NCBI GenBank assembly: GCA_018902385.1
Contig: JABSSW010000072.1
Location: forward strand, 1-64,000
Direction of reading: 5' to 3'
Origin: Physcia stellaris
Lineage: Eukaryota > Ascomycota > Lecanoromycetes > Caliciales > Physciaceae
DNA: 64,000 bases
The notes beneath the pieces are model-generated. The model was not told the DNA's origin, did not search any database, and saw only the letters and a list, made by a program, of their open reading frames with translations. Position numbers and translations under genes: made by a program. Below are positions 1 through 38,490 of the stretch, one piece after another. How positions within the stretch are numbered: the first letter of the stretch is position 1; every line of letters starts with the position of its first letter.

Positions 1-85
1 CCTAACCCTAACCTAACCTAACCCTAACCCTAACCCTAACCCTAACCCTAACCCTAACCCTAACCCTAACCCTAACCCTAACCCT
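1..85. repeat. Telomeric repeat tract (CCCTAA)n
   Basis: About 13 units of CCCTAA, the C-rich strand of the TTAGGG repeat used by most filamentous fungi, with a few shortened CCTAA units in the first 25 bases. The tract runs to the first base of the window and stops abruptly at a GCTAGCGG junction. Position 1 is therefore at or very near a physical chromosome end, and everything to the right is subtelomere. Confidence 0.97.
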
Positions 86-13747: not shown

Positions 13748-13837
13748 AGGAGAGCAGCGGAAGAAGCTCGATCCTTGAGGAGAGCAGCGGAAAAGCTCGA
13801 TCCATGAAAGAGAGCATCATTGAAAGCTCCATCTTTC
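13748..13837. repeat. 30-bp array overlapping the stop codon of the Ulp1-type gene
   Basis: Three units of exactly 30 bp start at 13748, 13778 and 13808. The first two share GGAGAGCAGCGGAA and AAGCTCGATCC, and the third is diverged and contains the stop codon of the gene on the minus strand. The core GAGCAG...AGCTCGA resembles the arrays at the ends of the Spo11-like and zinc-knuckle genes. Confidence 0.75.
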
Positions 13838-15543
13838 CAGTTGACCAGCCATGCACCTTCGTAGAGTATGCATGTCTTCTGGCAACAATGTGAGAAGCGG
13901 CCAACTCTCGACCAACCACCGCGCAGTACACAGTACAAAGGGACCGCAGTCAGAGTCATTGCTCTGCTGCGACTGCGGAGGCGTACGATAATGACCATTT
14001 CGCACATCCACCCTGCCTGATGAAAGAGTGAAGAGGTGCTGTGCGATCAGCCTCCACTTCGCGAGGAACTCGGCGTCATACCCTCCTTTGCTGGAGTAGT
14101 AATCGACCGTCGGTGCTCCCTGATTCAAAGACAAGACTGCCATGACCCAGTGATTGTCCATGACATGAATGGGGAAGAAGTGGTGTCCAACCTCTTCAAT
14201 TTTCGCCCCTGGATATGGCGCTGGGGGCCATGCTCTTGTCAGCAATTGCCCGGCTTCGAGACCCTTTGCCAACCAAGTAGTCCAGGAATGCCACCTGGGC
14301 GAGCCTTCTTGTTGATTCATGATAGAATCATCATCAAGCTGGAGATGGCCGTTGCCGAGATGACAGACCAAAGCCAAGTAGCAGTCGATGAGGCGGTCGG
14401 TGAGCCAGCTCCCATCGATCAAAGCCACCATCTCCGCTGGACTGAATTGGCATGGAGGGCTTAGGAGACCTGCACGTTTGGAGAGAATGGGGCCTTTGTC
14501 GTACCATGTAAGGCATTCAGGCTCGCCATCGAGCTGATTCTTCTCCAAGACCTGCGCATGGGTTAGTGCAGGGGTGGTCTCTCACTCTCCGTACGGCGCT
14601 TCTTCTCACGATTGAGCGGAGCACCAGTAAATACTGCAGGAGCACGCTTGGTCACCTGCTTAGGACCCGAAAACTTGTCAAGCTGTGCTTTTACTTGTAC
14701 AGGTGCCTGCGAAGCAGCTTCCTGTTTCTTCTGTAAAATACCGCGAATGTGCTCCAGCCTCTCGAGAGCCTTTCTAGGCTTAATAGGCTTTTGAGCGGTC
14801 ACGTCCATGGTCTTAAGCGCTTGGCATATGTTGTACCAGGCCGCCTCGCATCGCTGGACCTTCTCAATGTCTTTAGCCGTGACAGCTGAGTGCCATTTGC
14901 CTTCGTCTCCGATGGCCATTTGGAATTCTATCGCTTCAGCGACAGCAAGCTCTAGCACCGCTGCAGAAAAGTATTATCAGCATTTTCCATGCTCGATTAA
15001 ATGCATGATTGGTCTCCTAGTGACATAGCAAGCACGTGGAGGGAATATCTCTGGCGTTCTTGATACGATTAAAGCAGCCCCGTTAGAGAACGGTGGCAAC
15101 CACGGACACTCTTTATCGACGTAGGTGAGGACGCAAGGGCGGAAAAGCAAGAACAGGAGGAATACAAGTGACTTACGGGTCTTAGGTTCCCAGCGAAATT
15201 TCTCTTCTATCACTGGATTAGCCTTCAGCCACGTTGCAGCATCAAACACCAGTTTTATCAATGTAAAGATGATGGGGTTGTCAGGACTGCTATCGTCATG
15301 CTGGATGCTGAGATCCTTCAGTCTCATTAAGATGACCTGGCAGGCCAACAAGATATAGACTCCAAAGTCGCGTAAAGCTGATTCCTTAGCCTTCTGGTCT
15401 GTTGCTCTAAGGTATTCTGCAAAGAGTAAATTGACCGAGGACCAAGATCTGCACAACTCACTGTCGTCCGCCACCAGTGGTGGTGCTCGAGGCAATGGCA
15501 ATGGCCGCTTACCTACCTGGTCTACTTTTGCTTGAGTAGCCAT
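13817..15543 (-). CDS. Protein with C-terminal Ulp1/SENP-type (C48) cysteine protease domain
   Basis: Four exons fit: 15543-15177, 15110-15036, 14960-14635 and 14551-13817, giving 500 aa. Intron two has a TGCTGAT branch and CTGCAG acceptor, and intron three a CTAAC branch. Residues about 290-480 are a Ulp1-like catalytic domain, with His390 in DNHWVMAV, Asp406 in TVDYYSSKG, the oxyanion Gln452 and Cys458 in QSNDSDCGPFV, in the order and spacing of SUMO/NEDD8 proteases. The enzyme probably removes or matures a ubiquitin-like modifier in nucleus or cytosol. The N-terminal half is helical and unrecognised. A deleted copy lies at 38.2 kb and pieces of the upstream flank at 29.6 and 42.7 kb. Ulp1 domains occur both in host deSUMOylases and as passenger genes of some transposons, and the multicopy pattern favours the second. 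Exon edges are inferred; the catalytic domain is clear. Confidence 0.85.
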
Positions 15544-15639
15544 GACTGAGCGAGGACACAGATGTGGATTGACTTACCTTACTTACCTTGATGGATACGT
15601 CTACGTCTGGGTTCGAGTGGTTGATAAAGCAAATGCGGA

Positions 15640-16060
15640 ACTGCCGCTTCGCACTTTCCACTTCCGCATTCCATCCAAGGTCGGCCTGCTGAACAGGGAT
15701 GCTGATGCAGGGAAGGCGCGTGGAGTCCCAACCGTCAAAGAAATTGCTCGAACCTTCTGCTCGTTATATTGCAAGCGGCCGTTCATTGTTCTCCTCTTCC
15801 TTGTTCTTCATTCATTCGGAACGTTGTTTTTCGCCCATCGCTTCTGGGGGGTCGTCCCATGTCATACCAACTTCATAGTTCGACCGCGTAAGTAGAGGAG
15901 TTAGGCGACCATGCTACTGTCCAGCAGAACTCTTGTTGTGGGTGTTTTCTTGCAAAGACGGTGCTCGCTGGCCGGGCCAACCACCAAAGTCTCTATACAC
16001 AAAGCCTTCAGGGGCATTAGCTCGGGTCACCGTAGGTCTGTCACATGCCTCGCTCACATT
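15640..16060. repeat. Upstream flank of the Ulp1-type gene, repeated elsewhere
   Basis: This segment just 5' of the Ulp1-type gene is similar to 29570-29965. Shared words are GCTGATGCAGGGAAG, CCTTCTGCTC, CATGTCATA and AACCTTCAGGGG/AGCCTTCAGGGG in the same order and orientation. A short piece around GCTGATGCAGGGAA is also present at about 42790. It contains open frames, including one of 117 codons, but no motif. A divergent promoter or part of a repeated unit are both possible. Confidence 0.6.
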
Positions 16061-17480
16061 TCCAGTAGCATCACAGAATTCTTCAGACGCTATCGGTGCC
16101 CAAAGAGCAGTTCGGATGAGTATGATGAAAGCATCATGGCACCTCTGGAAGGTAAGTCCTTGCTGACTTGGGTAGCATCTTGGGAACGATCTGGAGACTT
16201 TGAAAGATGCACCAATTGCTATTCGTGACTGGGTATGCAGACAGAGAAACCTGCATGGAAGGTTGACATGCAATTGCACTTGGCTCCAGTGTGTCTCACT
16301 GATTCAAGTACATGCACACCTGCTTACCTCTGTTGATTGTGAATATCGTTCCCGCAGTTTTACACTTCGACCTCTTGTATTTTTATGCTGGATGTTTCCC
16401 TTAAGGCTCTTGTCTATGGGACGCCCATCTACTGCTTCTAAAGCCATCAACGTCTGTCTTGGCAGTCTGGTGGATACAAGGATACAGGTATCATGGAGCG
16501 CTCCACAATTGCGTTCCCCTCCTCGAGACTACCGTTCAACAGATCCCTTCAATGGGTCTGCAGAATCTTCTAGGATTCGGCAGGATGTCTCAGATAGCTT
16601 GGCGTAGCCTGTCGTCCCACCGCCGAAATTGGATAACAGTCCGCCTACACTGACTATGATACGAGCAGACAGAAGAGTCATAGACAAACGGCTAGAGCAC
16701 TGCGTAGATACTTGGAAATTCATTTGATGGTCAACCCAGCTGCCAATGGTGAGAACCTGAAGATGGCGTAAACCGCTCGGTAGGTACACATCAGTCCTAG
16801 GTTTGTAGGTAGAAGTACCTGAGTTTTCGTTTGTGGAAGACCAGGAACAGTCTATATCGTTAATTCTTTGACACCATCAAGCGCAGACAGTTGATAAGCG
16901 TTTGGTTCTAGCCTGAATCCACGACATATGACAGGCGACAGCTAAAGGGAATGGAGTGAAGACGAAAACAACATCAGAAACTTGCGAAGTAGTGCAAGTT
17001 GAAGAATAAAAGAGGCGGACGAAGCCTACCTATCATCTCTTTGCCTCCGTATTAATAGCTACCGGCCCCTACGGAATTCGAAAATCTCATCATGATCGCA
17101 TCCTCTGATCAATACCGAAGATTATCATAGCATTGGCCGCCACCGCAAAAGCCAGCTGCTGTACTGAAGCTTCTGGGCTTTATCGCAGTCATGCTTGGGC
17201 GAGGCCTCACGTAGCGTCGATCGAACCGAAGAAACACTTCTTCAGCCCTCAACCTAGTCTAGCTTGCTCGGGGCAGTAGGCAGCTGTATTTATTGATGAT
17301 CCAACCGGCTACTCAGTGATAGGCTTCCGAAAGCCATTCTGAGTACCTGATAGTAGGTGGGTTCGTCCGCCAAAGACTTACTCCGGGTGGCATCCTCGTA
17401 CGACGACCTGATGACGTTATTTACTCTATTTGATTGGGCGATATAGAGCCTGCGGTGGCTATCTGTCAGTCCTGCAGTGC
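16061..17480. other. No supported gene
   Basis: About 1.4 kb with short open frames and no recognisable domain. It separates the Ulp1-type gene (minus) from the decayed AAA copy (plus). Confidence 0.5.
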
Positions 17481-17486
17481 TGAGCT

Positions 17487-18365
17487 GTGGAAGGCTTCCT
17501 CAACATAGCAGCCAGGCACTTCTTAGAGTCTACGCTTGAGGAGATCGTTGGGTCTGAGCAGGGGAACGATACCATCACCACGGCAGCGAGTGTGCATATA
17601 GAACAGCCTCATCTTGCAGGAAATCCCAATCATCTGAGAAGCCTTCTCCATAACGTATCTGGAACGGGAAAAACAGCGATGGTAATGTCCGCAGCCAACG
17701 CAGCTGGAGTACAGTAGCTCCCTGTAAGCTGGCAATAGTGGAGAAAGAGCTTGCAAGCTTGTTCCAGATAGCCCAGGAGAATACGCCTGGGTAAATTATC
17801 CTAGAAAAATTCAGTGTCTATTTGCAGACGGCGGCAACGAAGTGACAGCTTAATTGAGACTCTCGATATCGCATTTCCACGAAGGACTGACGGTTATTGC
17901 CGCGACAACGAGTCCATGTTTCCAGCATCGCGCGGTACGTTGCCTTGACGGATATCATGCCGCCGGTGGAGGAGAAGGTGCCGAAGAGGAGTACTCGCTG
18001 TGGATATCATTAGGAGTATCCAGCAATGACATTTGGAGGGCAAGACTTTTCCTGATGCAGAACATGCCAGCCAGGATCGTGGACGGTCTGTTTTGCAGCT
18101 GTTGATGAGGAGAGTTTTTTGTCTCGTCGGGCTGCCAGAAGGCGTCTGCAGCAAGCCTGCGTGGCACATCTTGCCGGTAAGCTTCTCCATGACAATCTCT
18201 AGAAGTCTATCGACCCGCTTGAGAACTAAGGCGGAAGATAGGTTTTGTCGTAAGACTCGGCAAGCTTTGAAGCATTGGTTGGCTTGGATAGCAGAATTGA
18301 GACTCTGGTGGTTGGCCCGGCAGCAAGATCTGTTGAAGCCCCGTGCGGGAGACTGCTCGCAATAA
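17487..18365 (+). pseudogene. Decayed AAA ATPase, inverted copy of the neighbouring gene
   Basis: Conceptual plus-strand pieces match the intact minus-strand AAA gene at 18.8-20.8 kb in order. LEEIVGSEQGND corresponds to GEIVGFDRAKK, LLHNVSGTGKTAMVMSAANA to LLHGPPGTGKTTMARSAANS, and HEGLTVIAATTSP to YEGVTVIAATNRP. The Walker A GTGKT survives, but the pieces lie in different frames with stops between them, and the region around Walker B is replaced by out-of-frame sequence. It is a dead paralogue in opposite orientation. Its similarity shows that the AAA gene has been copied locally. Confidence 0.8.
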
Positions 18366-18404
18366 ACCGATAGAAACTCGTTGATACATACAATCTTATC
18401 CCAT

Positions 18405-18600
18405 GGTCTGGTGTGGTGCTATCCCGCCTTGCATCAATATGATAATACGCTTACCCGTATTTGGCACATTGCGTATGAAGACATCATGAAGGCGACATGA
18501 AGATGGCATGAAGAAAACATCATCTTCTGCTTTCGCCCCAAGTCGGGTACCCGTAGATCTATCGGTGCTTCTTAGAAAATGGCATTGTTTACTACTAGAC
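18405..18600. repeat. Shared downstream module, copy 1
   Basis: Begins ATGGTCTGGTGTGGTGCT and continues through CTTACCCGT, TTTGGCAC, ACATCATCTTC and CCCCAAGTCGGGTACCCG. Related sequences with the same order and orientation lie at 20950-21075 and 25765-25970. Each copy lies 3' of one minus-strand gene of the block, here the AAA gene, beyond its tandem array. It may hold a 3'-end or other regulatory signal, or be part of an element. Confidence 0.65.
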
Positions 18601-18680
18601 TATAGGATATAAATTCTACCTAAATGTCTACCACGTCAGATTTCTACGCAAAAAGCAGTAGCCGGAAAGGTGACATGTCG

Positions 18681-18788
18681 AGGCGGAGGAGATCAACTTG
18701 GCAGAGATCGATCCTCAAACACTCGACAAGTCAAGGCGGAGGAGATCAACTTGTTAGAGATCATCCTCAAGCACTCGACCAGAGGTCG
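18681..18788. repeat. 53-bp tandem duplication just past the AAA gene stop
   Basis: Two units start at 18681 and 18734. Each has GGCGGAGGAGATCAACTTG, then AGAGATC, ATCCTCAA and CACTCGAC. The array begins less than 20 bases beyond the stop codon of the minus-strand AAA gene, the position that arrays occupy at the ends of three neighbouring genes. Confidence 0.8.
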
Positions 18789-18804
18789 CTGGTTGCATCG
18801 TCAT

Positions 18805-20834
18805 CTAAATGCTCTTGCGGTCTTTTGCCCAGGCAGCGTGACGTGCTTCATCGCTTCCCGAGTCACGCGCGTCAGGTTTGACCTCCTCGATGGCGGCTTC
18901 CATGTCTTCCAGAGTGATCGGGCCAGGCTGCAAGTCAAGCGAGCTACCTATAGAGCGTCAATGTCAGCACGTTATGCTGATCGATATGTGAGCGTTGCTC
19001 GAGTTTGGCGACGACTTTTCCAAGCAAACCAACACCAACACGAAAGGTCAAATGCAGCCAAAATTTAAGGGAAAAGACGATAAATCGAGTTGGATATTAC
19101 ATCCTTTCCGAATCTCCATTCATGTGGACTTCCAGTATTACATCCCAGAGACGTGTAATAGATGATGAGAAGACAAGAAAGGTGGGGACTCGATCGCATT
19201 GGAGGCCAATGTACTTGGGCTAAGAGAGACTTACCATGAAACACTGACGCCCCAGTATCATGCGGAAGACATGCAACTGCTATGGTCTGACCCTGGAACT
19301 CCACCTATGTTATTGTAAGCGGTAGTTGGCCTGAGTCTTTCAATGCTTACTTACGTTGCGGAAGTGGCTCGGAGAGCTTTCATCGAGCCTGTCCTCGGTG
19401 TTGTTCCATGCAATGCGAACGACTCTTTGCACGTCATCGCCAGTAAAGCCAGCCATGTCTCGACCTAGCTGTTGGATTTGCTCTTCTGTCAGCAAATGAT
19501 ATGACAATGACTGGATCTTGAGCCGTAAAATTTGAGTGACCTCTTCCGTAGAAGGTAGGGCGACATGATACTTAACGTCAAAGCGACGAAGTACCGCGCT
19601 GCTAATGAGCCAGGGACGATTGGTCGCGGCGATTACCGTCACCCCTTCGTAGGACAGCGACATCTTTACCAGCAATACGGACGCAACTCTTTGGCTGCTT
19701 TCTGACTCTGGCTTGTCGCCCACTGCGAACAGCTTGTCTATTTCGTCGAAGAATATGATTGCGGGCGCACTCTCCTGAGCTATCTGAAACAGAGCTGCAA
19801 TGTTCTTCTCACTGTTACCAACGTACTGGTTCATGAGAGAACTGCTGAGGACCATGAAAAGTGCAGAATATCCGACTGAATTGGCTGCGGACCTGGCCAT
19901 GGTTGTCTTTCCCGTTCCAGGTGGACCGTGAAGGAGTAGGCCTCTATAACGGTTCGAGTTAGGCCGTCGTATGTGGCCGCTCGCTGCCTTAGTAATGATT
20001 TTTTTCGCCCGGTCGAATCCGACTATCTCTCCAAGCCCAGGCCCTGGCTTTGTAGGGACCCGCATCGAGTCAATCAAGGCACGAGTATCTTCCGGTATGG
20101 AGGCAGTCTTGGAAGTGGAAGCCGAGGGCTGTGCCGGCCGAGAGGCATCTTCAGGGATGGAGGCAGTATTGGTAGTGGAAGTTGAGGTCTGTACCGGTCG
20201 AGAGGGTTGTGAAACCGCTCTACCAAAGGTTAGCCTCTGTCGGCAAAGGATCTTCCGTTACTTACTCTGTCGGTAGCTTTGCCTTGACGCGCTGTGATAA
20301 TTCAGCAAACCTCTCTCTGTGCTTGGGGAAGATGCGATGGGCTTCCTCCATGCTATTCTTCTCTGTGTAGAACAGCACCATCACCATGATGTAGTCCAGC
20401 AGTACAATACTGACTGCGTGCACGATGTCCTCCTGTCCATTTGTCTCCGCAATCGCAAGCACCTTCTCGAAGGTGACGATCGTCTTCAACATAGCTTTCT
20501 TGTCGCTCTTTCGGACTTCATGGTCTGGTGGATATCGAAGAGTCCAAAGCTGGTCGACCAGGCTGTGTTTGCGGCACTGGAACCAGGCTTCGTGCATCTG
20601 CTTGAAAGTAGCATCGCCAACGTTGATAGTCTTCCAAACATGGAGTAGATCTTGATCATACCTCCTTGCTGACAAGCCAGTCGCAGCCCCAAATATTTGG
20701 CTTAGGGATGCGTCTCTCACTTCATTGACGAGAGGGAAGGGCTCGACAGTCTGCTCCCCACTCTGAAGTCTCTTGTTGCTTCTGCCGTCTTCTGAATCAG
20801 CACCACGCTTTTGACCTGTCTGTGGGCCTGACAT
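18805..20834 (-). CDS. AAA ATPase of the Vps4/katanin (meiotic clade) type
   Basis: Four exons keep phase: 20834-20266, 20219-19355, 19304-19235 and 18947-18805, giving 548 aa. Residues 1-189 are a helical N-terminal domain of unknown family whose last helix is MIT-like. Residues 190-235 are a Ser/Thr/Pro linker made of two copies of a ~22-aa unit ending in TASIPED. The AAA module follows, with Walker A GPPGTGKT (287-294), Walker B IIFFDEID (343-350), sensor-1 region VIAATNRP and a VLRRFD arginine finger, then a C-terminal ITLEDMEAAIEEVKP helix as in Vps4-like proteins. It should be an ATP-driven remodeller of a protein assembly; the substrate is unknown. The start at MSGPQTGQ is chosen over an upstream in-frame ATG because homology-like sequence begins later. 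A dead inverted copy lies at 17.5 kb. The intact catalytic motifs argue for a working gene. Confidence 0.88.
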
Positions 20835-20949
20835 GGTGTGGAGATGGAAGAATGTCGTAGTGGCAACAAGGTTGATGTGGGAATGGGAATGGAAGCTTGA
20901 GTGGAATCGAATGTTCGGAGAAAACGTAAGGTACATTACACTCAGCGGT

Positions 20950-21075
20950 GACGAGACGCTTACCCGTCCTTGGCACGGAACATATGAAGATGACATGAAG
21001 AGATTATCTTCCTCCGATCCAGCCCCAAGTCTGGTAATCGTATGTCTGTCAGCCTGTATTATTACAATTGCATCA
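20950..21075. repeat. Shared downstream module, copy 2
   Basis: CGCTTACCCGT, CTTGGCAC, ATGAAGATGACATGAAGA, ATCTTCC, GCCCCAAGTCTGGTAATCGT and GTCTGTC occur in the same order as in the copy at 18405-18600. It lies between the end of the Spo11-like gene and the start of the AAA gene, both on the minus strand, so it is 3' of the first and within the upstream region of the second. Confidence 0.65.
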
Positions 21076-21306
21076 TTTAGGGTAGTATCGGAGCTTGGGC
21101 CAGGGTGCTGCTGGTCACAATGGCATGTATCTACAAGACGTGATGAACTGCTAGAATTGGGAAGTTACTTGTTTACAGAGGCGTGTCATTTAAGCAAGTG
21201 CGGTTACTTGACCCGGAGATGTTGAAGATGATTGCGACATGTAGAGAAATGGAGCTTATTACTCTAACATTGCATATTTCTAGCTACCAACTACAAATGA
21301 TTGTCT

Positions 21307-21420
21307 CGGAGCAGGCAAGAGCTCGACGGAGCAGACTAGAGCTCAACGGAGCAGGCAAGAGCTCGACGGGGCAGACAAGAGCTCGACGGAGCAGACTAGA
21401 GCTCGACGGAGCAGGCAAAC
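21307..21420. repeat. 20-bp array next to the Spo11-like stop codon
   Basis: Five full units of 20 bp plus a partial sixth, alternating between CGGAGCAGGCAAGAGCTCGA and CGGAGCAGACTAGAGCTCGA. The array ends 10 bases before the stop codon of the minus-strand gene. Its GCAGACTAGAGC core also occurs in the array at the end of the zinc-knuckle gene (26041). Confidence 0.9.
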
Positions 21421-21429
21421 TGCACTTGA

Positions 21430-23116
21430 CTACACAAAGAGGGCTTCGAGGTTTTTAAGAAGCTCTTCTTTTTGCGTTTTGGTCATAGGCACCGCTGTTG
21501 GCACCTGTGAAGCAAGGGAGTCAGCTTCGCTTGCTGGAGGCTCCGGGACAGAGTCCAGTAACGCCTGGCTATCGATATCCTTGTATCTTTCGCCAGTCGG
21601 TGAACGCACGGATATTGGCTGCTTGGCCTTGACGCTTTCAGTCCTGACCTTGACGGGGCTTAGATCCTCAACCTTGTCGCGGACGTATACCTTTGCGTAA
21701 AGGTTGCCCACTTGAGTGAGGTCTGCTAAGCGAAATTTGCTGGCGCTTTCCAGCATCATCTCTAGCTCGGCTTTCAGCTCTGGCTCGTAGTCCAGCCATC
21801 CTGCCTTGCAAAACCCTGCAAACAAAGATCTGTCTCTCTTAGTAGACTTGACCAGTTTGTTGTTGAGCTTCTTTGACATCTTGGACTCCCAGCTGTCCAT
21901 GGCTTTGATGACATTGTCATCAGACTGGTGAGGTCGGTCTCGGCGGAACTGTGCCTCATGCTGTGCCTTGAAGGCGGCAGGAGATTCCAGCAGATCCTTG
22001 CGAGATGGGCCTACCCACCGAAGTTTTGGGCAAACTTCCGTCTGGTTGCACCAGGCGCTGGTCACGGTCCCGTACTTGAGGTTGTAAAAGATCTGGACTC
22101 CTTCGAAATCGTGATCACTGAAGTACAGAAAGGGGACAGAGGCAAGTTGTTCACTTCTGTAGAGCATGTGGAGAAGCTCTTTGGTCGCACTTCCTGGGCA
22201 GCCGGACGTCATGATCAGGATGACATCTCCGATTTCTTCCGCTGACATCAGCTGCTTGAGATTTCGGTGCTCTATGACGAGCACGGCGCGGACGGGAGCG
22301 TGTTCTTTGACAGCAACAGTGAGACTGTCAATGAGCGGTGAGATGGTCGTGGCCCCGCTCTGCCTCTGAACAGCAGTCTCTCGAAGGTAATCTCTGGGCC
22401 TACCACCTAGGACATCGCGATCTCTATAGAGCTGCATGTTCTTGACCAATTTCATGGTAATGGTGACCCCACGAGGAACCGAGATCTGTCCGTTGCCCTC
22501 GGGTTTGATGCCAAGGGCCCAAGGGTGCACGCCTATGGTAACCGCGAGGTCCTTGATATTCTTGCGGACCTGGGCCATGGTCATGTCCTTGGGACGGCAC
22601 TAAACCGATCAGCCAACTCCTTTCGGGGTCGACTAAGCCTTGACTTACTTCCTTGTATTCCACAAAGCGGTTCATGACATCTTCCTGTGACATCAAATGA
22701 TCCGCCATGGAGGCGCCGAGTTCAAACATACCTTTCCAGTATGCCACCGTCCCCTTGTTAAACCTGCGCGTGATTTTCTCATCTTTCCGTAGGAAAAGAT
22801 GGACGCCATCAAGCTCCTCCAGAACCACTGCTCCTTTTGCAGTGGTGGAGCTCAGGCGTAAACCTACAGCGCGATTGGCGTCCAACTCTGTAAACAGACG
22901 TTCGATCCTTGCGACGATCTAGGCGAGATTAGCATTGTTCCATTCCCAAGTAAGTGCTGAATCGTTGCAAGGTGGGAAGTAGAGTGGAGGGTACAGTAGA
23001 AAGTGCAGTGGAGGCGAGCCCGAGGCAGTCTTCGTGGACGAGCTGCAAGGCTCGGAGCAGATACGTACCTGACTTGTAGTTGGCGCCTCACGCCAGTCGA
23101 GAGACAGATGAGACAT
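21430..23116 (-). CDS. Spo11/topoisomerase VI subunit A-like protein (TOPRIM)
   Basis: Three exons keep phase: 23116-23069, 22918-22649 and 22599-21430, with GTACGT and GTAAGT donors, giving 495 aa. Residues ~100-145 match the winged-helix catalytic region of Spo11/TopVIA: VRKNIKDLAVTIGVHPWALG parallels the conserved helix, and Tyr104 in FVEYKE lies 13 residues before it, about where the DNA-cleaving tyrosine sits. The TOPRIM domain follows, with Glu216 in VLVIEH and Asp268/Asp270 in FSDHDFEGVQIFYNLKYGT. The C-terminal ~130 residues are unlike Spo11. It is much diverged from meiotic Spo11 and is likely a second paralogue. By family knowledge it would make a covalent 5'-phosphotyrosyl double-strand break; activity here is inference. 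No TopVIB-like GHKL subunit is visible. Divergent from the chromodomain gene. Confidence 0.85.
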
Positions 23117-23509
23117 CGTCAATCAATCGGCTGGCGATGAAGTAGCGATGAATGTGTGGGCTGGGTATGATGGGAGAAGGATCAAAGAGGCAGGGAATTC
23201 CAGGACTCTCCAATGCCAGTCCCGGATGACCGCTAACTCCAAGCTAAGCGAATTACCAATATTTCATCCAGATCAGATAAGATGGCAGGCTGTTCTCCGT
23301 CCAATCTTTCGGTAATGGTCCCCAATACCTTATCGCTGACGCGGCAATATTACGGTGGCCAACGTCATTGATTTCAGCTAGTCTGTCACGGGATTAAGGC
23401 AAGCTTGCCCACCAGCCATCCTCTGCCTCTTCCATCTCCTGCCACTGAAAGATTCCATTGCACCTCTGTTCGTCATCCAAGCAACCTTGGCAAAATCATC
23501 GCTTGCAAG
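23117..23509. promoter_or_regulatory. Shared divergent promoter region
   Basis: The 393 bp between the starts of the Spo11-like gene (minus) and the chromodomain gene (plus) must hold both promoters. No clear TATA box or repeated operator stands out. The arrangement suggests co-expression but does not prove it. Confidence 0.5.
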
Positions 23510-25032
23510 ATGACTCGAACTACCTCCAGCTCCCAAAACCCAATGACCGGGATCACGCTTCCCGATAGGGTCAAGAGTAAGCGAGGCAAGAGGTTGCGAG
23601 CTCGTCATGCAGCCTCGACGACACCACGTCATCTGAAGCCATGGAGCGCACCAGTAAAGATGGTGAAGCAATCTTTCTTAGAGGACTATGACGGCGGTGA
23701 GGGATTGTCCACTGTCTACGAGCTCAAAAAGAGACGCGCACAGAGAGAGTGAAGCTGGAATGCCAGGGCAATTCAGCCGACTTCAGCATGTCCTTGACGC
23801 TCGAAAGACAGCATGTGGACAATGAGGAAACCCTGCTGTCCGTGAAGCTCCCCAACGATGACTATCGGATCGGCATTCGCCTTTTCGAGGTTGATCGACG
23901 TATTGAGGTGATCAAGACCTCGAGTTCCTCTAGGCAATCCAGAGAAGATTGCTCAGTCATCTATTTTGATGACTACAGGAATAACTTGAAGCAAGGCAAG
24001 GCCATGCTAAAGAGGCTTGCAAATGTACTAGGAGAGATGCCAAGCAGATGGTTTACTTACCGTAACTTCCTGCCAGTCGGCCAAAGGGCAGAGGTAGCTA
24101 CCACTGCCGATGCCGCTCCCCCTCCCTTTGTACACCATGTCAAGGGCGGCCTCACGTGGACCTTTACAGGCGCGTTGGCAAGCTTTGACTTCCAAAGGGC
24201 GCTCGGAAATCTGACGCTCGAGGATGTAGAGACTGACCCAGACAACCCCTTCAAGACCGCCAATCCGGCAGTCCAAGGTATGGTGACCAGAGGGAAAGCT
24301 CGAGAAATGGGCATTTTCGTTCCTGAAATCTCGCTTCCAACGAGCGATAGAAGATCTTGGCGACTTGAGCGCCGTCGCGTCGCCCGCCAAAAGAAGGCAG
24401 GGTGGATTGCTGACGAGACCCAAGGCGCTTGCTCGTCGGAGACCCTTCAGCGGTCCGACGCTGGTCCGTCGGAGACCCTTCAGTGGTCCGATGCTGGCCT
24501 ATCGGAGACCCTCCAGAGGTCCGAAGCTTCATCATATGGAGCGACGGAGACCCTTCAGCGGTCCGATATGGAAGATCTTGAAGCCATGGAGGCTCGCGAA
24601 TTGTCCCTTCCTGCAGTTGAGACAAAGTCCGCTGGCAAAAGGAAGGCGCGCAATGACAAGCCTGAACCTGAGTCTGAGACTGACGCTGGGGAGGGTGAGT
24701 ACCTCATTAGGAAGATCACCGACTATCGGGTGGATGAGGAGCGCGGAGAGCAGTACTTCGTCTTTTGGCAGAATTACCCCGACCACGAAGCCAGCTGGAA
24801 CGACGCCGCAGATACGTCTGAGGCAGCGATTAGGGACTTTAGGTCCAGTACCAAAGGCGCGAAGATCGTCAAGGACTATCGCACCAGTACGGCAGGTCAA
24901 GCAGCACTTGCAGCACATGAAGCTGCACAGGCCGCAGAAGCTGCGTCTTCTTCTCCGCCGGCGGTCGCACCAAAGGCCAAGGGGAAGAAGGGCAAGAAAG
25001 GCAAAGGGCGTAAGGGCAAAGGCAGAAAATAG
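23510..25032 (+). CDS. Chromodomain protein with ETLQRSD repeats
   Basis: Exon one is 23510-23696 and exon two 23744-25032; a 47-nt intron (GTGAGG...ACAG) restores the frame and gives 491 aa. The N-terminal ~300 residues are unrecognised. At about residues 290-330 four units with the core SETLQRSDAG follow in tandem (33-bp DNA repeats). Residues ~381-432 are a chromodomain: EYLIRKITDYRVDEERGEQ, then YFVFWQNYPDHEASWND with the aromatic positions expected for methyl-lysine binding. The tail is Lys/Gly-rich (KGKKGKKGKGRKGKGRK) and probably binds nucleic acid or acts as a nuclear signal. Likely nuclear and chromatin-bound. Chromodomains occur in host heterochromatin proteins and at the end of some retroelement integrases, but no integrase is present here. 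The small intron is inferred. Confidence 0.8.
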
Positions 25033-25764
25033 CTGTGTTAGCAATATATTACGTTCTCCCAACCGTCGTTGTGCATTGTGTCCAGAGTGAATATGTAATA
25101 GAAGTAGAATCGTGAGTGAGGCGGGAAGATCGGAACGTTGACCAACCTGACCACATCTGCGGAGTTCAACAACTCAACAAGCGCAGCAGAGATTCAGTCA
25201 CTGTAGGTTGTAAAGTTGTCCCAAAGCCCCCAAGGAAGAAATCTTAGACAAGGATAAATTCAATCAGAGTCGTTGCTGTTGCGTCGCATGAGCGGGAAAG
25301 CGCATAGAGGGATTGGCAATGATCCCAGCTTCCCGGTATCTTGCCGCACTCGTACATTAGTCCTGCACGACTACAATTAGCGTGTCTTAGAAGAAAAGTT
25401 TGTTGACACTACATGTCCTGCAAGATGAAAATGTCGTTGTTAGCAAAAATGAGACAGCACTTGGTGGAATCGAACCCCAGAGCAACGGGCAAAAAGTTCA
25501 AAGTAGCGAGACCGGTGTTTGGAGCCCGGGGGTTTCGATCCCCCTCAACGAATCAACGAAGAACCAATTCCAACTGGTAAAGCCCCTGCTACGGTCTCTT
25601 GATGTAATCCAGATGCGCCTAATTCAATAATATGTCATTCATTACTTTGGTAAGATTGTTCCCACGTCAAAGTACCTGCCAAAGGATATTACTCGAGAAG
25701 TGCGGGTTGGAGGAATATCACTGGATCAATGCGATATTTGCGCAAGGGACAGTTGTATCATGCC
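25033..25764. other. Intergenic; tRNA-like B-box pair, no gene
   Basis: About 730 bp with no convincing reading frame. At 25462-25550 there is a plus-strand hairpin-like GGGGGTTTCGATCCCCC, resembling a tRNA T-arm, and a minus-strand GGTTCGATTCC that fits the B-box exactly. Neither has a matching acceptor stem and A-box at the right distance, so I do not call a tRNA; a tRNA fossil is possible. Confidence 0.4.
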
Positions 25765-25970
25765 ATGCTCTGGTGTGGTGCTGTTTTTGCTTTTCGTCCA
25801 TCCCGTCACCGCCTACATGCTCAATGCAACAAGCCGTATACTCATACCTGGCACAAAGTGATCGAGTTTAAGAGGAGACATCATCTTCGAATTCCGTCCT
25901 GAGTCGGGTAATCGTAGGTCTATCAGGGAATATCATCAAAAAGACAAGTCACAAAGATTTAGAACCACTG
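25765..25970. repeat. Shared downstream module, copy 3
   Basis: Begins ATGCTCTGGTGTGGTGCT and continues to ATACCTGGCAC, ACATCATCTTC, GAGTCGGGTAATCGTAGG and TCTATC, in the same order and orientation as the copy at 18405. It lies 3' of the zinc-knuckle gene, beyond that gene's array. A run of 21 A (26020-26040) separates it from the array. Confidence 0.65.
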
Positions 25971-26040
25971 AGTACCAGGCCATGAGATTGTCTATAACAT
26001 AAGCTAGGTACAAAACGCCAAAAAAAAAAAAAAAAAAAAA

Positions 26041-26185
26041 CCTGGGCAGACTAGAGCCTCACAGGTAGCCCGGGCAGTCGAGAGCCTCACGGGTAAGCAG
26101 AGCAACCTGGGCAGTCGAGAGCCTCACAGGTACGTTCCACAGAGAAGATAGCTCGAGCTCGGGCAAACGAGAGCCTCACAAGCCG
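26041..26185. repeat. Array overlapping the zinc-knuckle gene stop codon
   Basis: Four irregular units of about 28-50 bp share CGGGCAG or TGGGCAG, then GAGAGCCTCAC or TAGAGCCTCAC. The last unit contains the stop codon of the minus-strand gene. The first unit has GCAGACTAGAGCC, nearly the same core as the array at 21307-21420. Confidence 0.8.
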
Positions 26186-27255
26186 AATTGTGCTTTCTCT
26201 TCTTCTTCGTTGAAGGAGACCTCATCGTGCAGCCATGAGTTGACAGCTCGCGGGAGGCTAAGCCCAGTCCGAGCGGCCAAACTCAAGAATCTCCAGATAT
26301 CCTCTGGAGATTGGACAAGATGACTTGCTGCGAATCGCATGTCCGCCTCATCGTCCACTACATCAACTCCCTCAGGAGCAGGGCCAGCCATCTGAAAAAT
26401 GTACTCTTCTTGCGCGTCATGAGTAGACAACGCAGAGAGACGCTCAGCCAATTCATTGATTGACTCTATGGTGACAGGGGCAGTGAGTCGAAGGATGGGT
26501 CGGGACGTCTCTTGGACATCTCCGTTCTTCCCCTCATCTTTCTTCTCCCCATCTCCCTTCTTACCGTCGTCAGGCTTTTCGCCCTCCTTCGGCTTCTCGC
26601 CTTCAGGCTTGTCGCCTTTAGGCTTGTCATCTTTGTCCTTCTTCTGAGGACGGCGGCGGTTGTTCTTCTTGGTGACCTTGTCACCGTCCTTTTTGACTGG
26701 CTCGAGGAGCGACGGCTTGCCGCCTTGCTTCCCCTTGCCTTTGGAAGAACCTTTGCCCTTTTGCCAGGGCTTGCCCTTGTTGGCGGCAGGGTTGTTCACG
26801 GTGGGCCCATGATAGACATTTTGGGTGCCTCCTATGATTATGGAAGCCCCAGGGTACCCGCCGACAGCTCCAGGGTTCATCGCCATCATGCCCATACCCA
26901 TAGCAAGATTGCCTGGCATGCCGGCAAAATTGCTGGACCCAAATTGCTGCAGCATGGGCATCATTTGCTGCATTGGTTGCATCTGCTGCCACTGCTGCTG
27001 CTGCTGCTGTCCTTGTTGCCAGATCGTGACCTCTTGCGGGGTCATGAACGGGCTGGGCTGGGGGCCTGTGGTGGTCAATTGTCCCACAAGACGACACATG
27101 CCCTTGTGTCGCTTTCCACAGGTCTGGCACAAAGGCCAGCACTCAACTTTGGGGTCGTGCGGCTTACCGCACACAGCACACTTGTCAAAACGGGGCTTTT
27201 TGCCGCCTCCGCCCTTGTCGCCGCTGCCCCCGTTGTTGGCCCCACTGGTATCCAT
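26176..27255 (-). CDS. CCHC zinc-knuckle, Gln/Met- and Lys/Gly-rich protein
   Basis: A single open frame of 359 aa starts at MDTSGANNGG. Residues ~25-55 hold two knuckle-like motifs, CAVCGKPHDPKVEC and CQTCGKRHKGMC (Cys-x2-Cys-x3-His-xn-Cys), of the kind that bind single-stranded nucleic acid. Then come a Gln/Met-rich segment, a Gly/Met-rich segment, and a long Lys/Asp/Gly/Pro low-complexity linker starting near KGKPWQKGKGSSKGKGK. The last ~110 residues are a folded-looking acidic domain ending in EEEEKAQFGL. I do not recognise the family. An RNA- or DNA-binding accessory protein is a fair guess. CCHC knuckles also occur in retroelement gag proteins, but this protein lacks other gag features. 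Its stop codon lies inside a tandem array, as for its neighbours. Confidence 0.7.
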   Translation of the reverse strand: MDTSGANNGGSGDKGGGGKKPRFDKCAVCGKPHDPKVECWPLCQTCGKRHKGMCRLVGQLTTTGPQPSPFMTPQEVTIWQQGQQQQQQWQQMQPMQQMMPMLQQFGSSNFAGMPGNLAMGMGMMAMNPGAVGGYPGASIIIGGTQNVYHGPTVNNPAANKGKPWQKGKGSSKGKGKQGGKPSLLEPVKKDGDKVTKKNNRRRPQKKDKDDKPKGDKPEGEKPKEGEKPDDGKKGDGEKKDEGKNGDVQETSRPILRLTAPVTIESINELAERLSALSTHDAQEEYIFQMAGPAPEGVDVVDDEADMRFAASHLVQSPEDIWRFLSLAARTGLSLPRAVNSWLHDEVSFNEEEEKAQFGL

Positions 27256-30529: not shown

Positions 30530-30752
30530 AGAAAAGTGGCTCACTAGCACATCGTCAAAACGTACGAAATAGTATGATGTAATGCCTTCAAGGATAGTCT
30601 TATTGGATGCTAGGTATCTAGATGTAAGTATGTACAAACTGCATATCCCACATGATGTTTTATCAATGCCTCTATGTCATGCCAATAGGACCTAACCCTA
30701 TTGGTCCTAGTGTTTCGTTGCTCGGGCAATTTCGCACTCCTTCCCTCCAACA
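30530..30752 (-). repeat. 3' LTR of the element
   Basis: 223 bp, about 98 % identical to the copy at 35354-35576. The outer 5' end, read on the minus strand, is TGTTGG. The other end is CTTTTCT and not the usual CA. The immediately flanking CCACA is repeated on the far side of the element. Confidence 0.93.
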
Positions 30753-33700
30753 GCTCTCTTTCATAACAAGTTGTCGTCCCCGACAACATCTCGTTAAATC
30801 ATCTCCAAGCATGTAGCATAGATCCCCATACGCATAGCAATCTTGACATCGAATATTGGGCCAAATAGACCACGTTGTGTGCGTAAAGCAATGGGATTCG
30901 TGAAACAGATATCGGAGAATGCCGAAAACCCGCAGAAGTAGGGCTTTACCCTCGTCGCAATTGCACGATACCAAAAGACTGTTTTGCAGGCCCGAAATAC
31001 CGAAATCGTATGCTGACTCGTTAACCTCGAAATTGAACGTTTCTAATCCTTGCAAGCTGCCGGAGAACGAGGCCATTTTGTATGCGAAACAACCAAATAT
31101 CCCAGATGTATTGACTCTTATTGCCGTGCCCGAGAACGTGGCCATTTTGTGTGTGCATTCTGCGATTATATCGAGGATTCTAACCATTGTCGAAGTGCCA
31201 GAGAACAGGGCGATTTTGTATGTGGATTCTGCAAATATCCCAGCAACGGTTTGTTGACTTCTTGATTCGATATGCTTCGACTTTAATGATCTCTTAATCT
31301 TCACCTTCGGGCGTGCTTTGTAGTCAGTTTTGAGGTCAAATAACGTGATGTAATCGTATAGTGTCCACAGAATCATACACGGCATCGTGATGTACCGGAT
31401 CCAGGCCAAACAATAGGCCAACAGAGCGTGGTGTACAACAGGCTTCGTGATCGTAGACTTCGTAATCGTAGTATCGTCGGGCTTTGTTGTGAGATCTGAA
31501 ATTGTGTCCACGAAGCAGATATCCTGCTCTCCTTCATAACATGAAGTCGCATGATATACTTTTGCCATGGCTTCATTATCGTATTCTTCAATAAGCTCAG
31601 CGGAGCACGTCGAAGACTGCTCCCTTCCATAATCTGAAGTTGCATAATCAGCAGAGCACGTCGAAGACTGCTCCCTTCCATAATCTGAAGTCGCTTCGGT
31701 GACTTGCATTGTAACTGGCGGAGTAGGCGGCGAAGGCGATGAAGGCGAACGAGTGCTTGAATATGTGACTGAATCAGTTGTATAGGCCTCGAAGTCGATA
31801 TCAATGCTGAGGTCAAAAGCAGGAAGTGCAGGAAGTTCGTAGACGTAAATCGAATCTTTCTCCCATGTCTCCGTATTCTCGGTATGATGTACTGTCGGGT
31901 TTTTCGAAGATACAGCTATTTCAGTAACAGAATCAAAAGCTCCAGTAGCCAAACCATCCTTATTCGTGAGATTCTCAAGAGATAGCATATCCACTGCGGC
32001 CGGCATCTCGGTATCCTCAGAGCACGATGCGGACGAGTTTTTCGAAAATGTATGAAGAGTACGCTTAGAATCAAAAACCTCCTTTTCTGTAGTAGCGGCA
32101 TTCCAATTACTTGTTTCAGAAGCAAGAATCTTACCCTTCTTTGACTCGGTATCACTGATATCCACCATAGCTGCATTGATCTCTGGTAAATCGCACGGCA
32201 TTTGCTCCAAAACAGACAGAGACTCGTCAGCGATGCTGACTTTGGGTGATGACTTCTGAAAACTCGCAGAAACAACAGCCCATTTGCGAGACTCAGAAAC
32301 AAGAACTTCATCCATTGACTCGGTATCACTAGTATTCTCGATAGCTGCACTGATCTCGGAAAATTCGCGTGGCATTTCCTTCAAAGTAGGCGAAGACTCG
32401 TAGACGGTACTGGTTTCGAATGACGGCTTTTGCAAAATCGTAGATTCTGAAGCAGTAGACTTTGCGAATGACTCGATGTTCGTGACATCCACAGGTATAC
32501 TGATCTCTGGTCTTTCAGGCTGTGTTTGCTCCAGAAAAGGCGGAGACTCGTCAACAATGCTGGCTTCAGGTAACGACTTCTGTAAACTCATAGAAACAGA
32601 CCCATCCGGCGATTCTGAAGCAACAGACTTCCCAGGGGTATTCCTTATATCCTCATTACAGCTCTCTGATAAATTGCATGCAATTTCCTTTGGTACAGGC
32701 GGAGACTCGTAGACAGTACAGATTTCGAGAGACGGCCGAGCACGCCAATTCCGGGTAAGCCACGGTTTCGAGGTATGCGCAGTTGAAGATGTACGAGTGC
32801 TTGATACTGAGCATTTCTCTTGCATTTGATAGGGCCTTTGTTCCAAAACGGGCGGAGACTCGTTGGCAACACTGATTTCAGGTAACGTAGTAGACGCAGG
32901 CCATTTGCGAGGCCCAGAAGCATTAAGCTCGGTTGATTCGTCCCTTTCTGCGGGCTCCTCAGGTCGAATAGCTTGTTCATTGGAGACAGAATCACATATT
33001 GGCTCTGGGTGACTAGGTAATGTCATCACATTCTCCGAGATCGAGCTGTCAGGATGCGAAGTAGTCTGAGGTCCTTCAGGTATCCTACCCGAGGCCGAAA
33101 CGTTCGAATCCGAAGAGTTTCCATTGATGTGTGGCTGATTCAGCTTGCTTGCAGACACGGCATATGACGGACTTTTCAACTCTGAGGGCTGGGCGGTGGT
33201 TGTAGCAAAAACCTCGCACGGTTGACTGTCCTCCTTGACAATATACTGACTGTCCTTGGCTGTATTCTGGAACGTGCTTTCGGCTTTTTTATGTTGTGGT
33301 GAAACGGAACGATATCGCTCGATTCGATCAACAGGTATTGACTCCGGCTTTCGTGTATATGGTTCTGGTTGATTGTTCATAGCAAACTTCAATGCGGCTG
33401 CCATACCTTGTGTTTGCATAACGGTTGATAATTTCTTCTCGAATTCGTTTTCTAGTGCTTGCTTTTTGCTCGTTATGTAGCTTGATATTTGCTCAGCAGC
33501 TTCGTATGCTCCATAAAGATTCCATTCAGACGTGGCCAAATACCTGTTCGACGTGGCCAAATATTTGTAACGCATTTTGCATCGAAGTTGTCTATCATTC
33601 AATCCATTCACAAACTTCTCAATGACATGATCCAGCACGGTGATTTCTGACAGACTCAATATTGCGTCATCGTCGTCCTTTTCTTTATCCTGACCACCAA

Positions 33701-34779: not shown

Positions 34780-35180
34780 TGGATGATTTGAACGGCACGT
34801 CGTTCCTTGTCCTGCTGATATTGATACTGGATACTTGAACGGCACGTCGTTTCTCGTCTGCTGATATTTCGCTCCAAATGACTTGGACGGCACGTCGTTT
34901 CTCGTCTGTTGATACTTTACGTTGAATGACCCGAACTGCACGTCGTTTCTAGCCTGTAAACACTGATTCTGATCTGAACAGCACGTCGTTCACGGACTTC
35001 CTGAATGATCTGAACAGCACGTCGTTCACGGTTCACAAACACACTGTATTTTCTGACCTGAACGGCACGTTGTTCCAGGTCTACTAACACACTGTATAGA
35101 ATGACTTGAACGTCTCGTCGTTTCTCGTCGACTGATACTGAATGGCTTGAACGGCACGTCGTTTCTCGCCTGCTCGTACT
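34780..35180 (-). repeat. Leader repeats of the LTR element
   Basis: About nine units spaced roughly 40-60 bp apart share GAACGGCACGTCGTT or close variants, separated by CTGATATTGATACTG-like spacers. They lie between the 5' LTR and the gag-like region and may be part of the leader of this family. Confidence 0.8.
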
Positions 35181-35353
35181 GTGATTCTGACAACTGATAA
35201 GCTGAATACTGCTTCTAATATTTCATAGCTGTATTTGCGTGAAACTGCTTGGATTTAATGCTGAAATGGATTACTTTTCGATATCGATATTCCTGTCAGG
35301 AGGCGGCTAGCAGCGACCTGCTCTGACGTTCGGTTTATTTTGGCAAGATCTCC

Positions 35354-38024: not shown

Positions 38025-38184
38025 GCATACTCTAGTCTCGTCATCCCAAAGGCATTGGTGTCGGATGGTAAGAAGAGGAATGGAGAAGACTAGAAGTATG
38101 GAAAGGAGATGATAGAAAATGAACACTATCAAAAAGTCGTCTCTGGATGATTATGCAACCTCCGATCTTTCCTCCATGTGCTTC

Positions 38185-38490
38185 CTGTGCCACTATATGA
38201 GATTGATTACCCGTCTACCCGACCATGGAAAGTGCTGATGTTACTCTTCTGCAGCGGTGCTAGAGCGGCATTCCCAGACTAATTGGTTGGCAAAAGGCCT
38301 CGGAGCCGGGCAATCGCTGACAAGGGGATGGCCCCCAGCGGCATATCCAGGGCGAAAATTGAAGATGTTGGACACCACTTCTTCCCTTGTCATGTCATGT
38401 CATGGACAGTCACTGAGTCATGGCAGTTCTAATCGTAGATTACTACTCCAGCAAAAGAGTGTACATACCATGTCGAGTGGAGATGGTGAA
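38185..38490 (+). pseudogene. Deleted copy of the Ulp1-type gene
   Basis: CATGGAAAGTGCTGATG...TTCTGCAGCGGTGCTAGAGC repeats the end of intron two and start of exon three of the gene at 13.8-15.5 kb. It is fused straight to the exon-four part reading TNWLAKGLGAGQSLTRGWPP (WLAKGLEAGQLLTRAWPP in the intact gene) and then DYYSSK-like sequence. About 0.6 kb between these parts is missing and the catalytic Cys region is absent. It is dead. Because intron sequence is kept, it was copied as DNA and not through a spliced RNA. Confidence 0.85.

What the first reader, a model, noticed from the sequence alone, without database searches (positions are those of the whole stretch)
13748..27255. Unnamed multigene block: Spo11/TopVIA-like + AAA ATPase + Ulp1 protease + chromodomain + CCHC proteins
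Seen: five genes of nuclear/DNA-chemistry type lie together next to a telomere, with intact catalytic motifs in the three enzymes. They share 3' arrays and a downstream module, and there are decayed copies of two of them in the same window. Known: none of the described large fungal elements (Starships with a DUF3435 recombinase, Helitrons, Polintons, KDZ/Plavaka) has this gene set, and none of their hallmark enzymes is visible here. Inference: the block may be a new mobile or selfish system in which a Spo11-like enzyme cuts DNA, the AAA protein drives assembly, the chromodomain targets chromatin and the protease edits SUMO.
Basis: partly seen in the sequence, partly recalled or inferred. Interest (0 to 1): 0.9.

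Follow-up and report, generated by a model that had tools for sequence, protein, structure and literature searches.

The report
Spo11-like five-gene cassette near telomeres
Next to chromosome ends of this fungus sits a set of five genes, one resembling the enzyme that breaks DNA in meiosis; the same set recurs elsewhere in the genome with its genes reshuffled, so the five appear to be inherited together as a unit that I could not match to any described element.

Summary
The block is real. Its five genes (Ulp1/C48-like, AAA ATPase, Spo11/TopoVIA-like, N-domain plus chromodomain, double CCHC knuckle) recur together at two other contig starts of the same 44-Mb genome (C1, C17), at 27-44% amino-acid identity (four families measured) and in a different order each time. 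A fourth, divergent contig start (C24) keeps Spo11, AAA and probably the chromo gene. All five families independently make C1 and C17 the closest pair, so the genes diverged together. The Spo11-like protein keeps the catalytic Tyr and metal-binding Glu and DxD in all three complete sets and is not the host SPO11 (C27). Two complete sets start 13.8 and 14.7 kb from telomere arrays; broken relics lie inside contigs. Best reading: a co-inherited, probably selfish subtelomeric DNA-break cassette that spreads by break-and-copy. The cassette itself is near certain (about 0.95); the mechanism is inferred (about 0.4). Only one fungal genome could be searched, so presence or absence between strains is untested.

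The parts
1..85 (.). telomere array (CCTAAC)n at the contig start
13817..15543 (-). Ulp1/C48-like protein gene (ATG at 15543; catalytic-domain ORF 13817-14581; N-terminal exons within 14563-15543)
   Evidence: Pfam C48 4e-11; recurs at C1 and C17; triad Asp replaced by Ser
17535..17916 (+). decayed fragment of the AAA gene
19236..20834 (-). AAA ATPase gene: helical N-domain (exon 20266-20834) plus AAA domain (exon 19355-20219), further exon from 19304; 3' end not determined
21430..23116 (-). Spo11/TopoVIA-like gene, exons 23069-23116, 22649-22918, 21430-22599; putative catalytic Tyr at residue 104, metal-site Glu 216 and D268/D270
23510..25032 (+). chromodomain protein gene: cassette-specific N-domain, chromodomain, basic Lys/Gly tail; exon junction near 23.74 kb not fixed
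   Evidence: Pfam Chromo 8.8e-8
26179..27255 (-). protein with two CCHC-like zinc knuckles and low-complexity tail
38164..38463 (+). decayed fragment of the Ulp1-like gene (77-88% DNA identity in pieces)
18397..18609 (.). MITE-like ~210-bp repeat (genome-wide family, not specific to the block)
20949..21079 (.). partial copy of the same MITE-like repeat
25757..25983 (.). diverged copy of the same MITE-like repeat
15681..16022 (.). ~340-bp dispersed genome-wide repeat upstream of the Ulp1-like gene (not specific)

Best explanation
SHOWN (in this genome): a five-gene subtelomeric cassette, inherited as a unit, with a Spo11/TopoVIA-like protein that keeps the catalytic Tyr, Glu and DxD, an AAA ATPase with its Walker motifs, a chromodomain protein with a cassette-specific N-domain, a double CCHC-knuckle protein and a C48-fold protein that lacks the usual acid. 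INFERRED: the products act as one machine. The chromodomain protein brings it to methylated subtelomeric chromatin, the Spo11-like dimer breaks DNA there by tyrosine transesterification, the Vps4/CdvC-like AAA protein remodels or recycles the complex, the CCHC protein binds nucleic acid, and the C48-like protein binds or weakly processes SUMO-type modifiers. Repair of the broken end from an end that carries the cassette copies the cassette. It would thus be a selfish, homing-like element of chromosome ends that needs no terminal repeats or transposase.
For: Co-occurrence: own-genome searches with the AAA N-domain and chromo proteins gave 3 of 3 matches at C72, C1 and C17; the Ulp1 search gave the same three loci plus the C72:38-kb relic and one weak C22 hit; CCHC counterparts lie in the same loci. 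PF21180 finds 7 Toprim loci: 1 host SPO11 (C27), 3 in complete sets (C1, C72, C17), 1 in the partial set C24, 1 solitary (C52), 1 broken (C16). Co-divergence: C1-C17 is the closest pair in 5 of 5 families, each p <= 0.011; identities 43/41/40/44% against 27-37% to C72. Catalytic residues conserved after long divergence. Location: blocks of 11.6-13.4 kb starting 13.8 kb (C72) and 14.7 kb (C1) from telomere arrays and 12.4 kb from the start of C24, whose first 27 b match the sequence beside the telomeres of C72 and C1. Dispersal: relics of cassette genes on C7, C10, C16, C18, C39 and at C72:38 kb. No flanking repeats; no transposase, reverse transcriptase or DUF3435 among the ORFs scanned: 26 window pieces and 10 from C1, C17 and C24.
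Against: No two intact cassettes exceed 44% protein identity in the four families measured, so no recent copying is visible in this genome. Gene order is not conserved. The C1 AAA gene has one in-frame TAA, so the C1 set may be decaying. The Ulp1 triad acid is lost. C24 lacks detectable Ulp1 and CCHC genes, and its chromo and AAA N-domain counterparts were missed by the ordinary searches and show only in profile or spliced comparisons. Relics could stem from chromosome rearrangement rather than transposition. None of the five products matches a TopoVIB-like (GHKL) partner family in Pfam. Three of the five contigs with telomere arrays (C46, C69, C77) show no cassette at that end. Only one genome was available, with no expression data. 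Homing by repair is not directly evidenced.
Confidence: 0.42

Rival explanations
1. A host accessory gene cluster: an old duplicated set of subtelomeric genes with a role in meiotic or telomere-proximal recombination or chromatin, kept by the host and not mobile.
For: All three complete sets lie at contig starts and are mostly intact although old; old divergence without recent copies; no ends or transposase.
Against: Relics in at least five contig-internal places, some closer to C72 or C17 than the intact sets are to each other. Gene order reshuffled. Divergence of 56-73% between paralogous sets in one genome is high for housekeeping paralogues (inference).
Confidence: 0.27
2. A classical large DNA transposon with defined ends in which the Spo11-like protein serves as transposase and the AAA protein as target selector.
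For: Gene types fit a cut-and-target machine; internal relics imply movement.
Against: No inverted or direct repeats flank any of the four blocks within 6 kb (1.5 kb on the left of C17); gene order differs between copies; no near-identical copies.
Confidence: 0.12
3. A eukaryotic genome-defence module that works like bacterial Wadjet: a TopoVIA-type nuclease with an ATPase that attacks foreign DNA.
For: The Toprim exon also matches JetD_C above its cut-off (24.7 bits, cut-off 22) and PADLOC JetD models (best 3.8e-6); the AAA domain matches PADLOC IetA (4.3e-32) and TRIP13 models, although any AAA domain of this clade might. Co-diverging, multi-locus, subtelomeric.
Against: No SMC-type JetC or JetA/B counterpart among the five; the AAA is nearest to the Cdc48/Rix7/Vps4/CdvC group; the TOP6A-Spo11 model fits better than JetD_C (56.5 against 24.7 bits).
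Confidence: 0.1
4. Remnants of an integrated large DNA virus or linear plasmid.
For: A C48-type protease, an AAA ATPase and CCHC proteins occur in some large viruses (recalled, no call).
Against: No relative confirmed in the viral contig collection with 4 of the 5 protein alignments (32, 22, 75 and 58 pattern matches, 0 confirmed); genes have predicted introns; no polymerase, capsid or packaging gene among the ORFs scanned.
Confidence: 0.06

Closest known systems
Spo11 / topoisomerase VI A subunit
   Same: Toprim fold (PF21180), acidic Glu and DxD metal motif, Tyr aligning with the second Tyr of host RNIYYKD
   Different: Not the host SPO11, which is a separate gene on C27; 28-43% identical among its copies; no TopoVIB-like partner among the five; embedded in a repeated subtelomeric set
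Vps4/CdvC/Cdc48-type AAA ATPases
   Same: Single AAA domain of this kind; best NCBIfam model is CdvC, far below that model's cut-off (118.7 bits against 650); PDB hits include Rix7, Cdc48 and Vps4; helical N-domain, with weak, non-significant MIT-like hits from a low-confidence model
   Different: N-domain has no Pfam family; encoded in the cassette
SENP/Ulp1 C48 peptidases
   Same: C48 fold with His, Gln, Cys kept
   Different: Triad Asp is Ser in 3 of 3 copies; long cassette-specific N-terminal part
Starships, KDZ/Plavaka, Helitrons, Polintons
   Same: Multigene or mobile elements of fungi, some with C48 proteases (recalled)
   Different: No DUF3435 recombinase, KDZ transposase, Rep/helicase or polymerase/integrase found among the scanned ORFs; gene set not shared (recalled)
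Wadjet JetD
   Same: Toprim of TopoVIA type
   Different: No SMC partners among the five; eukaryotic; other partners

Membership tests
Spo11/TopoVIA superfamily | Toprim domain of TopoVIA type | tested here: met
   PF21180 over cut-off at C72, C1, C17, C24, C52; 1d3y E 2.8e-11 by profile
Spo11/TopoVIA superfamily | catalytic Tyr in the winged-helix domain | tested here: met
   aligned with host RNIYYKD in C72, C1, C17 and C52; C24 uncertain: absent from my exon model, a possible Tyr stands upstream in the same open frame
Spo11/TopoVIA superfamily | metal-binding Glu and DxD | tested here: met
   E216, D268 and D270 invariant in 5 of 5 sequences
Spo11 (meiotic orthologue) | being the genome's own meiotic SPO11 | tested here: not met
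   a better-matching SPO11 gene lies on C27 (8.8e-28)
Spo11/TopoVI | TopoVIB-like GHKL partner | tested here: inconclusive
   no GHKL family among the five products scanned; the rest of the genome was not searched for one
Ulp1/SENP peptidase | C48 fold | tested here: met
   Pfam over cut-off for C72 and C1; C17 not scanned
Ulp1/SENP peptidase | His-Asp-Cys triad | tested here: not met
   Asp is Ser in 3 of 3
Starship | DUF3435 tyrosine recombinase | tested here: not met
   none among the 26 window ORF pieces scanned; other ORFs not covered
KDZ/Plavaka, Helitron, Polinton | their transposase, Rep-helicase or polymerase/integrase | tested here: not met
   same scans; not all ORFs covered
DNA transposon (any) | terminal repeats and target duplication | tested here: inconclusive
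   no repeats between the flanks of 4 of 4 blocks (6 kb each side; 1.5 kb left of C17); no empty site available
Wadjet | JetA/B/C SMC complex with JetD | tested here: not met
   no such partner among the five
Selfish/drive element | presence/absence polymorphism and transmission bias | not testable with these tools
   one genome only; the genome search says it holds no relatives of it

The most novel reading that the evidence does not exclude
A new class of eukaryotic selfish element: a subtelomere-homing cassette that uses a Spo11/TopoVIA-type transesterase, aimed by a chromodomain protein, instead of a transposase or homing endonuclease, and spreads between chromosome ends by break-induced copying through the host's own repair.
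Probability: 0.3. Interest if true: 0.93.

Novelty: categorically new. Interest (0 to 1): 0.82.

Why it matters
Spo11-type enzymes are known from meiosis and as topoisomerase VI. A multi-locus, co-diverging gene set built around a second, catalytically conserved Spo11-like enzyme at chromosome ends would show that this chemistry was also recruited into an accessory, probably selfish, system. It would make testable how subtelomeres gain and lose accessory genes, and would give a natural Spo11-type complex with four new partner proteins to compare with the meiotic one.

Tried and rejected
(1) The MITE-like module as a cassette end or cis-element: rejected, at least 40 copies genome-wide. (2) The 340-bp repeat and the subtelomeric repeats R1 and R2 as ends: rejected, all dispersed genome-wide. 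(3) Terminal repeats: none. (4) Relatives in viral contigs (0 confirmed with A1-A4) and, with the Spo11 alignment only, in bacterial/archaeal genomes (54 pattern matches, 0 confirmed). (5) AlphaFold2 without relatives: Spo11 exon pLDDT 36.5, useless; AAA N-domain 54.9, helical, 0 fold matches at E <= 0.001, several weak MIT-domain hits. (6) A Toprim-region tree: unresolved among C1, C17 and C72 (IQ-TREE support 40-41; only C24+C52 is supported, 89). (7) Classic CpA-type RIP as the cause of relic decay: not seen in the C39, C10 and C72 relics; the C18 relic lies beside a differently mutated stretch. (8) Literature, search listings only: (3 papers; 0; 1; 0; 24, 15 listed; 0; 49, 12 listed; 7, 6 listed) showed no title or abstract that describes such a gene set; (RIP) was a listing too. 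Only PMC12203943 was opened (passages). The library holds open-access papers only, so print elsewhere cannot be excluded.
Full report
WHAT WAS CHECKED. The window is the telomere-bearing start of contig C72 (193 kb) of an unnamed 44.0-Mb, 147-contig genome. HET-domain genes and short introns point to a filamentous ascomycete (inference). The five genes of the finding are present. Pfam gives Peptidase_C48 (4e-11), AAA (1.8e-35), TOP6A-Spo11_Toprim (4.6e-15) and Chromo (8.8e-8); the fifth protein has no Pfam family. The Spo11-like gene has three predicted exons and gives a 495-residue protein.

THE SET RECURS. Searching the whole genome with each protein gave AAA N-domain and chromo matches only at C72, C1 and C17 (3 of 3 rows each). 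The Ulp1 search gave the same three loci, the decayed copy at C72:38 kb and a weak C22 hit (E 0.016, not followed). The CCHC search found C72, a decayed C10 piece and a weak C64 hit, but not its C1 and C17 counterparts, which are too divergent for it. With the loci in hand, all five genes were found at each site. C1: CCHC ORF 14678-15670 (-), Ulp1 about 16.87-18.45 kb (+), chromo about 18.75-20.54 kb (-), AAA 21.15-22.55 kb (+), Spo11 24.70-26.54 kb (+). C17: Ulp1 1.5-3.2 kb (-), AAA 3.67-5.06 kb (+), CCHC 6.13-7.22 kb (+), chromo about 8.9-10.8 kb (-), Spo11 11.3-13.07 kb (+). The window order is Ulp1-, AAA-, Spo11-, chromo+, CCHC-. Order and orientation differ in all three. The C1 and C17 chromo genes also end in a chromodomain-like stretch with a basic tail: C1 scores Pfam Chromo at E 0.026, below the cut-off; C17 was read by eye. 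A BLAST of all ORFs of 60 residues or more among the four regions held (E <= 1e-4) found no sixth shared gene family apart from repeats and a family with a zinc-finger-like motif shared by C17 and C24.

A FOURTH, DIVERGENT SET. Contig C24 starts with Spo11 (12.43-14.40 kb, -), a probable chromo N-domain gene (15.07-16.3 kb, +) and an AAA gene (about 23.0-24.3 kb, +). The chromo counterpart rests on hhalign E 0.0011 in a single comparison, probability 20.5%, and on spliced scores of 57 and 64 with the C1 and C17 queries against shuffle maxima of 46 and 43; with the C72 query it is only 45 against 41 (8 shuffles each). The AAA N-domain counterpart rests on hhalign E 0.00014, probability 52.7%, over 135 columns. 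Ordinary searches missed both. No Ulp1 or CCHC gene was found at C24. C52 carries a Spo11-like gene with no other cassette gene found within about 8 kb.

CO-DIVERGENCE. Pairwise identities C1-C17 are 43, 41, 40 and 44% for Spo11, AAA, Ulp1 and chromo, against 36/35, 35/34, 33/33 and 28/27% to C72. Counting columns where exactly two of three copies agree, C1=C17 wins in 5 of 5 families against the larger of the other two counts (89:53, 73:45, 77:50, 92:39, 26:9; one-sided p 0.0016, 0.006, 0.010, 2e-6, 0.003; for CCHC only the first C17 ORF was used). The families therefore tell the same history, as expected for genes that travel and function together. This is a similarity test, not a rooted tree; the tree of the Toprim region was unresolved for these three.

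THE SPO11-LIKE ENZYME. PF21180 finds seven loci in the genome: the host SPO11 on C27 (8.8e-28), C1, C72, C17, C52, C24 and a broken copy on C16. The host gene reads RNIYYKD at the catalytic site; MAFFT sets its second Tyr on the Tyr of RFVEYKE (C72), RFIAYKD (C1), RFIAYKD (C17) and RRAQYA (C52). My C24 exon model lacks it; a possible Tyr stands upstream in the same open frame. Glu of EHRNL and the DxD motif are invariant in 5 of 5 sequences. The profile matches solved TopoVIA structures (1d3y, E 2.8e-11). PMC12203943 (passages) states that the catalytic Tyr and two metal-binding residues are conserved in Spo11 and TopoVIA proteins. Conservation after more than 55% divergence implies selection for activity (inference).

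THE OTHER PARTS. The AAA protein has an N-domain unknown to Pfam and one AAA domain; its best NCBIfam model is CdvC, though far below that model's cut-off, and its PDB hits are led by Rix7 and Cdc48 with Vps4 further down. A low-confidence single-sequence model shows the N-domain as helical with a three-helix bundle before the AAA domain, and weak, non-significant MIT-domain hits; this is a lead only. The C1 AAA gene has one in-frame TAA. The Ulp1-like profile matches SENP1 (E 2.3e-9), but SENP1's YYDS Asp aligns with Ser in all three copies. It may be a modifier-binding pseudo-protease or use a changed mechanism (inference). The CCHC proteins share little beyond the double knuckle.

WHERE THEY ARE. 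An exact (CCCTAA)4 pattern occurs on five contigs: at the starts of C1, C69 and C72, and in reverse on C46 (393 kb) and C77 (147 kb), which I take to be right ends, their lengths not having been seen. Of these five, C1 and C72 carry a cassette at that end; no cassette match fell on C69 or C77, and only a weak chromo-like hit at 125 kb on C46. C24 begins with 27 b that match the telomere-adjacent sequence of C72 (96%) and C1 (89%). C17 lacks telomere repeats at its start. Blocks are 11.6-13.4 kb long and start 14.7, 13.8 and 12.4 kb from the starts of C1, C72 and C24, and 1.5 kb from that of C17. Given their contigs, random placement of all four within 15 kb of an end has a crude probability of about 5e-6; this treats contig ends as chromosome ends and uses a cut-off chosen after seeing the data.

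RELICS. Broken or partial pieces lie on C39:81 kb (Spo11, C72-type), C10:324-338 kb (CCHC, Spo11 of C1 type, chromo), C18:349 kb (CCHC) and 365 kb (Spo11), C16:397 kb (Spo11 with a stop), C7:655 kb (chromo, C17-type, two stops), possibly C46 and C56 (weak), and C72:17.5 and 38 kb. Weak hits on C22 and C64 were not followed. Several relics are nearer to one lineage than the intact lineages are to each other, which suggests dispersal within this genome after the lineages split. Rearrangement of subtelomeres is not excluded.

WHAT FELL AWAY. The 340-bp repeat and two further repeats near the blocks are also genome-wide. No repeats flank the blocks.

MECHANISM. Two layers should be kept apart. The unit (five genes that co-occur, co-diverge and sit at contig starts, at least two of them telomeric) is shown within this genome. 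That the products form a chromatin-aimed DNA-break machine, and that the cassette spreads by break-induced copying between ends, is inferred from domain chemistry, location and relics. The lack of recent copies means any spread is old or happens through sex or transfer between lineages, which one genome cannot show. A retained host function is the main rival.

NOVELTY. No described element that I know of (recall) has this gene set. The paper searches (listings only, open-access library) showed none. The viral collection gave no relative with four of five alignments, the prokaryotic one none with the Spo11 alignment. Fungal genomes other than this one could not be searched, so the family may have been noted elsewhere under single-gene names.

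Noticed in passing
L021 (C18:363834-366980) positions 1-1400; L056 (C52:338000-342294) 1251-3750; window 251-750: Stretches almost devoid of CpC and CpT (observed/expected 0.00-0.15 in 500-b windows; median of 1147 windows 1.0) while CpA stays normal and CpG is high. Against the C72 repeat copy the C18 stretch shows 61 C>T/G>A and 0 reverse changes: 33 of 38 CpC/CpT and 26 of 27 GpG/ApG sites changed, but 2 of 20 CpA, 0 of 17 TpG and 0 of 17 CpG. This looks like a repeat-mutation process of RIP type that hits CpC/CpT and spares CpA; RIP in most fungi prefers CpA (abstract of PMC2621366 in the listing).
   Followed up: partly
window 30530-35576: Two direct repeats of 223 b, 97.8% identical (30530-30752 and 35354-35576), flank ORFs 33783-34613 and 30672-33782 on the minus strand; the former reads like a gag-type protein (by eye), no Pfam match at E <= 0.01. 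Perhaps a non-autonomous LTR element.
   Followed up: partly
C24:18433-19443 and 21061-21921 (L050): Two tandem paralogues (32% identical over 199 aa) of an unknown family beside the divergent cassette; no Pfam match above cut-off.
   Followed up: partly
C52:299.4-300.6 kb (L013/L023): A solitary Spo11-like gene of the cassette kind with no cassette partner found within about 8 kb; conserved Tyr, Glu and DxD.
   Followed up: partly
window 36423-37046, 41027-41827, 45061-47151: A Tle1-like hydrolase domain (PF09994) and two HET-domain genes beyond the block.
   Followed up: no
G000 genome-wide; examples at C24:14854-15063, C1:19299-19523: MITE-like family of about 210 b with ~30-b inverted ends, up to 89% identity to the C24 copy, 399 first-look candidates of which 40 were scored.
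   Followed up: partly
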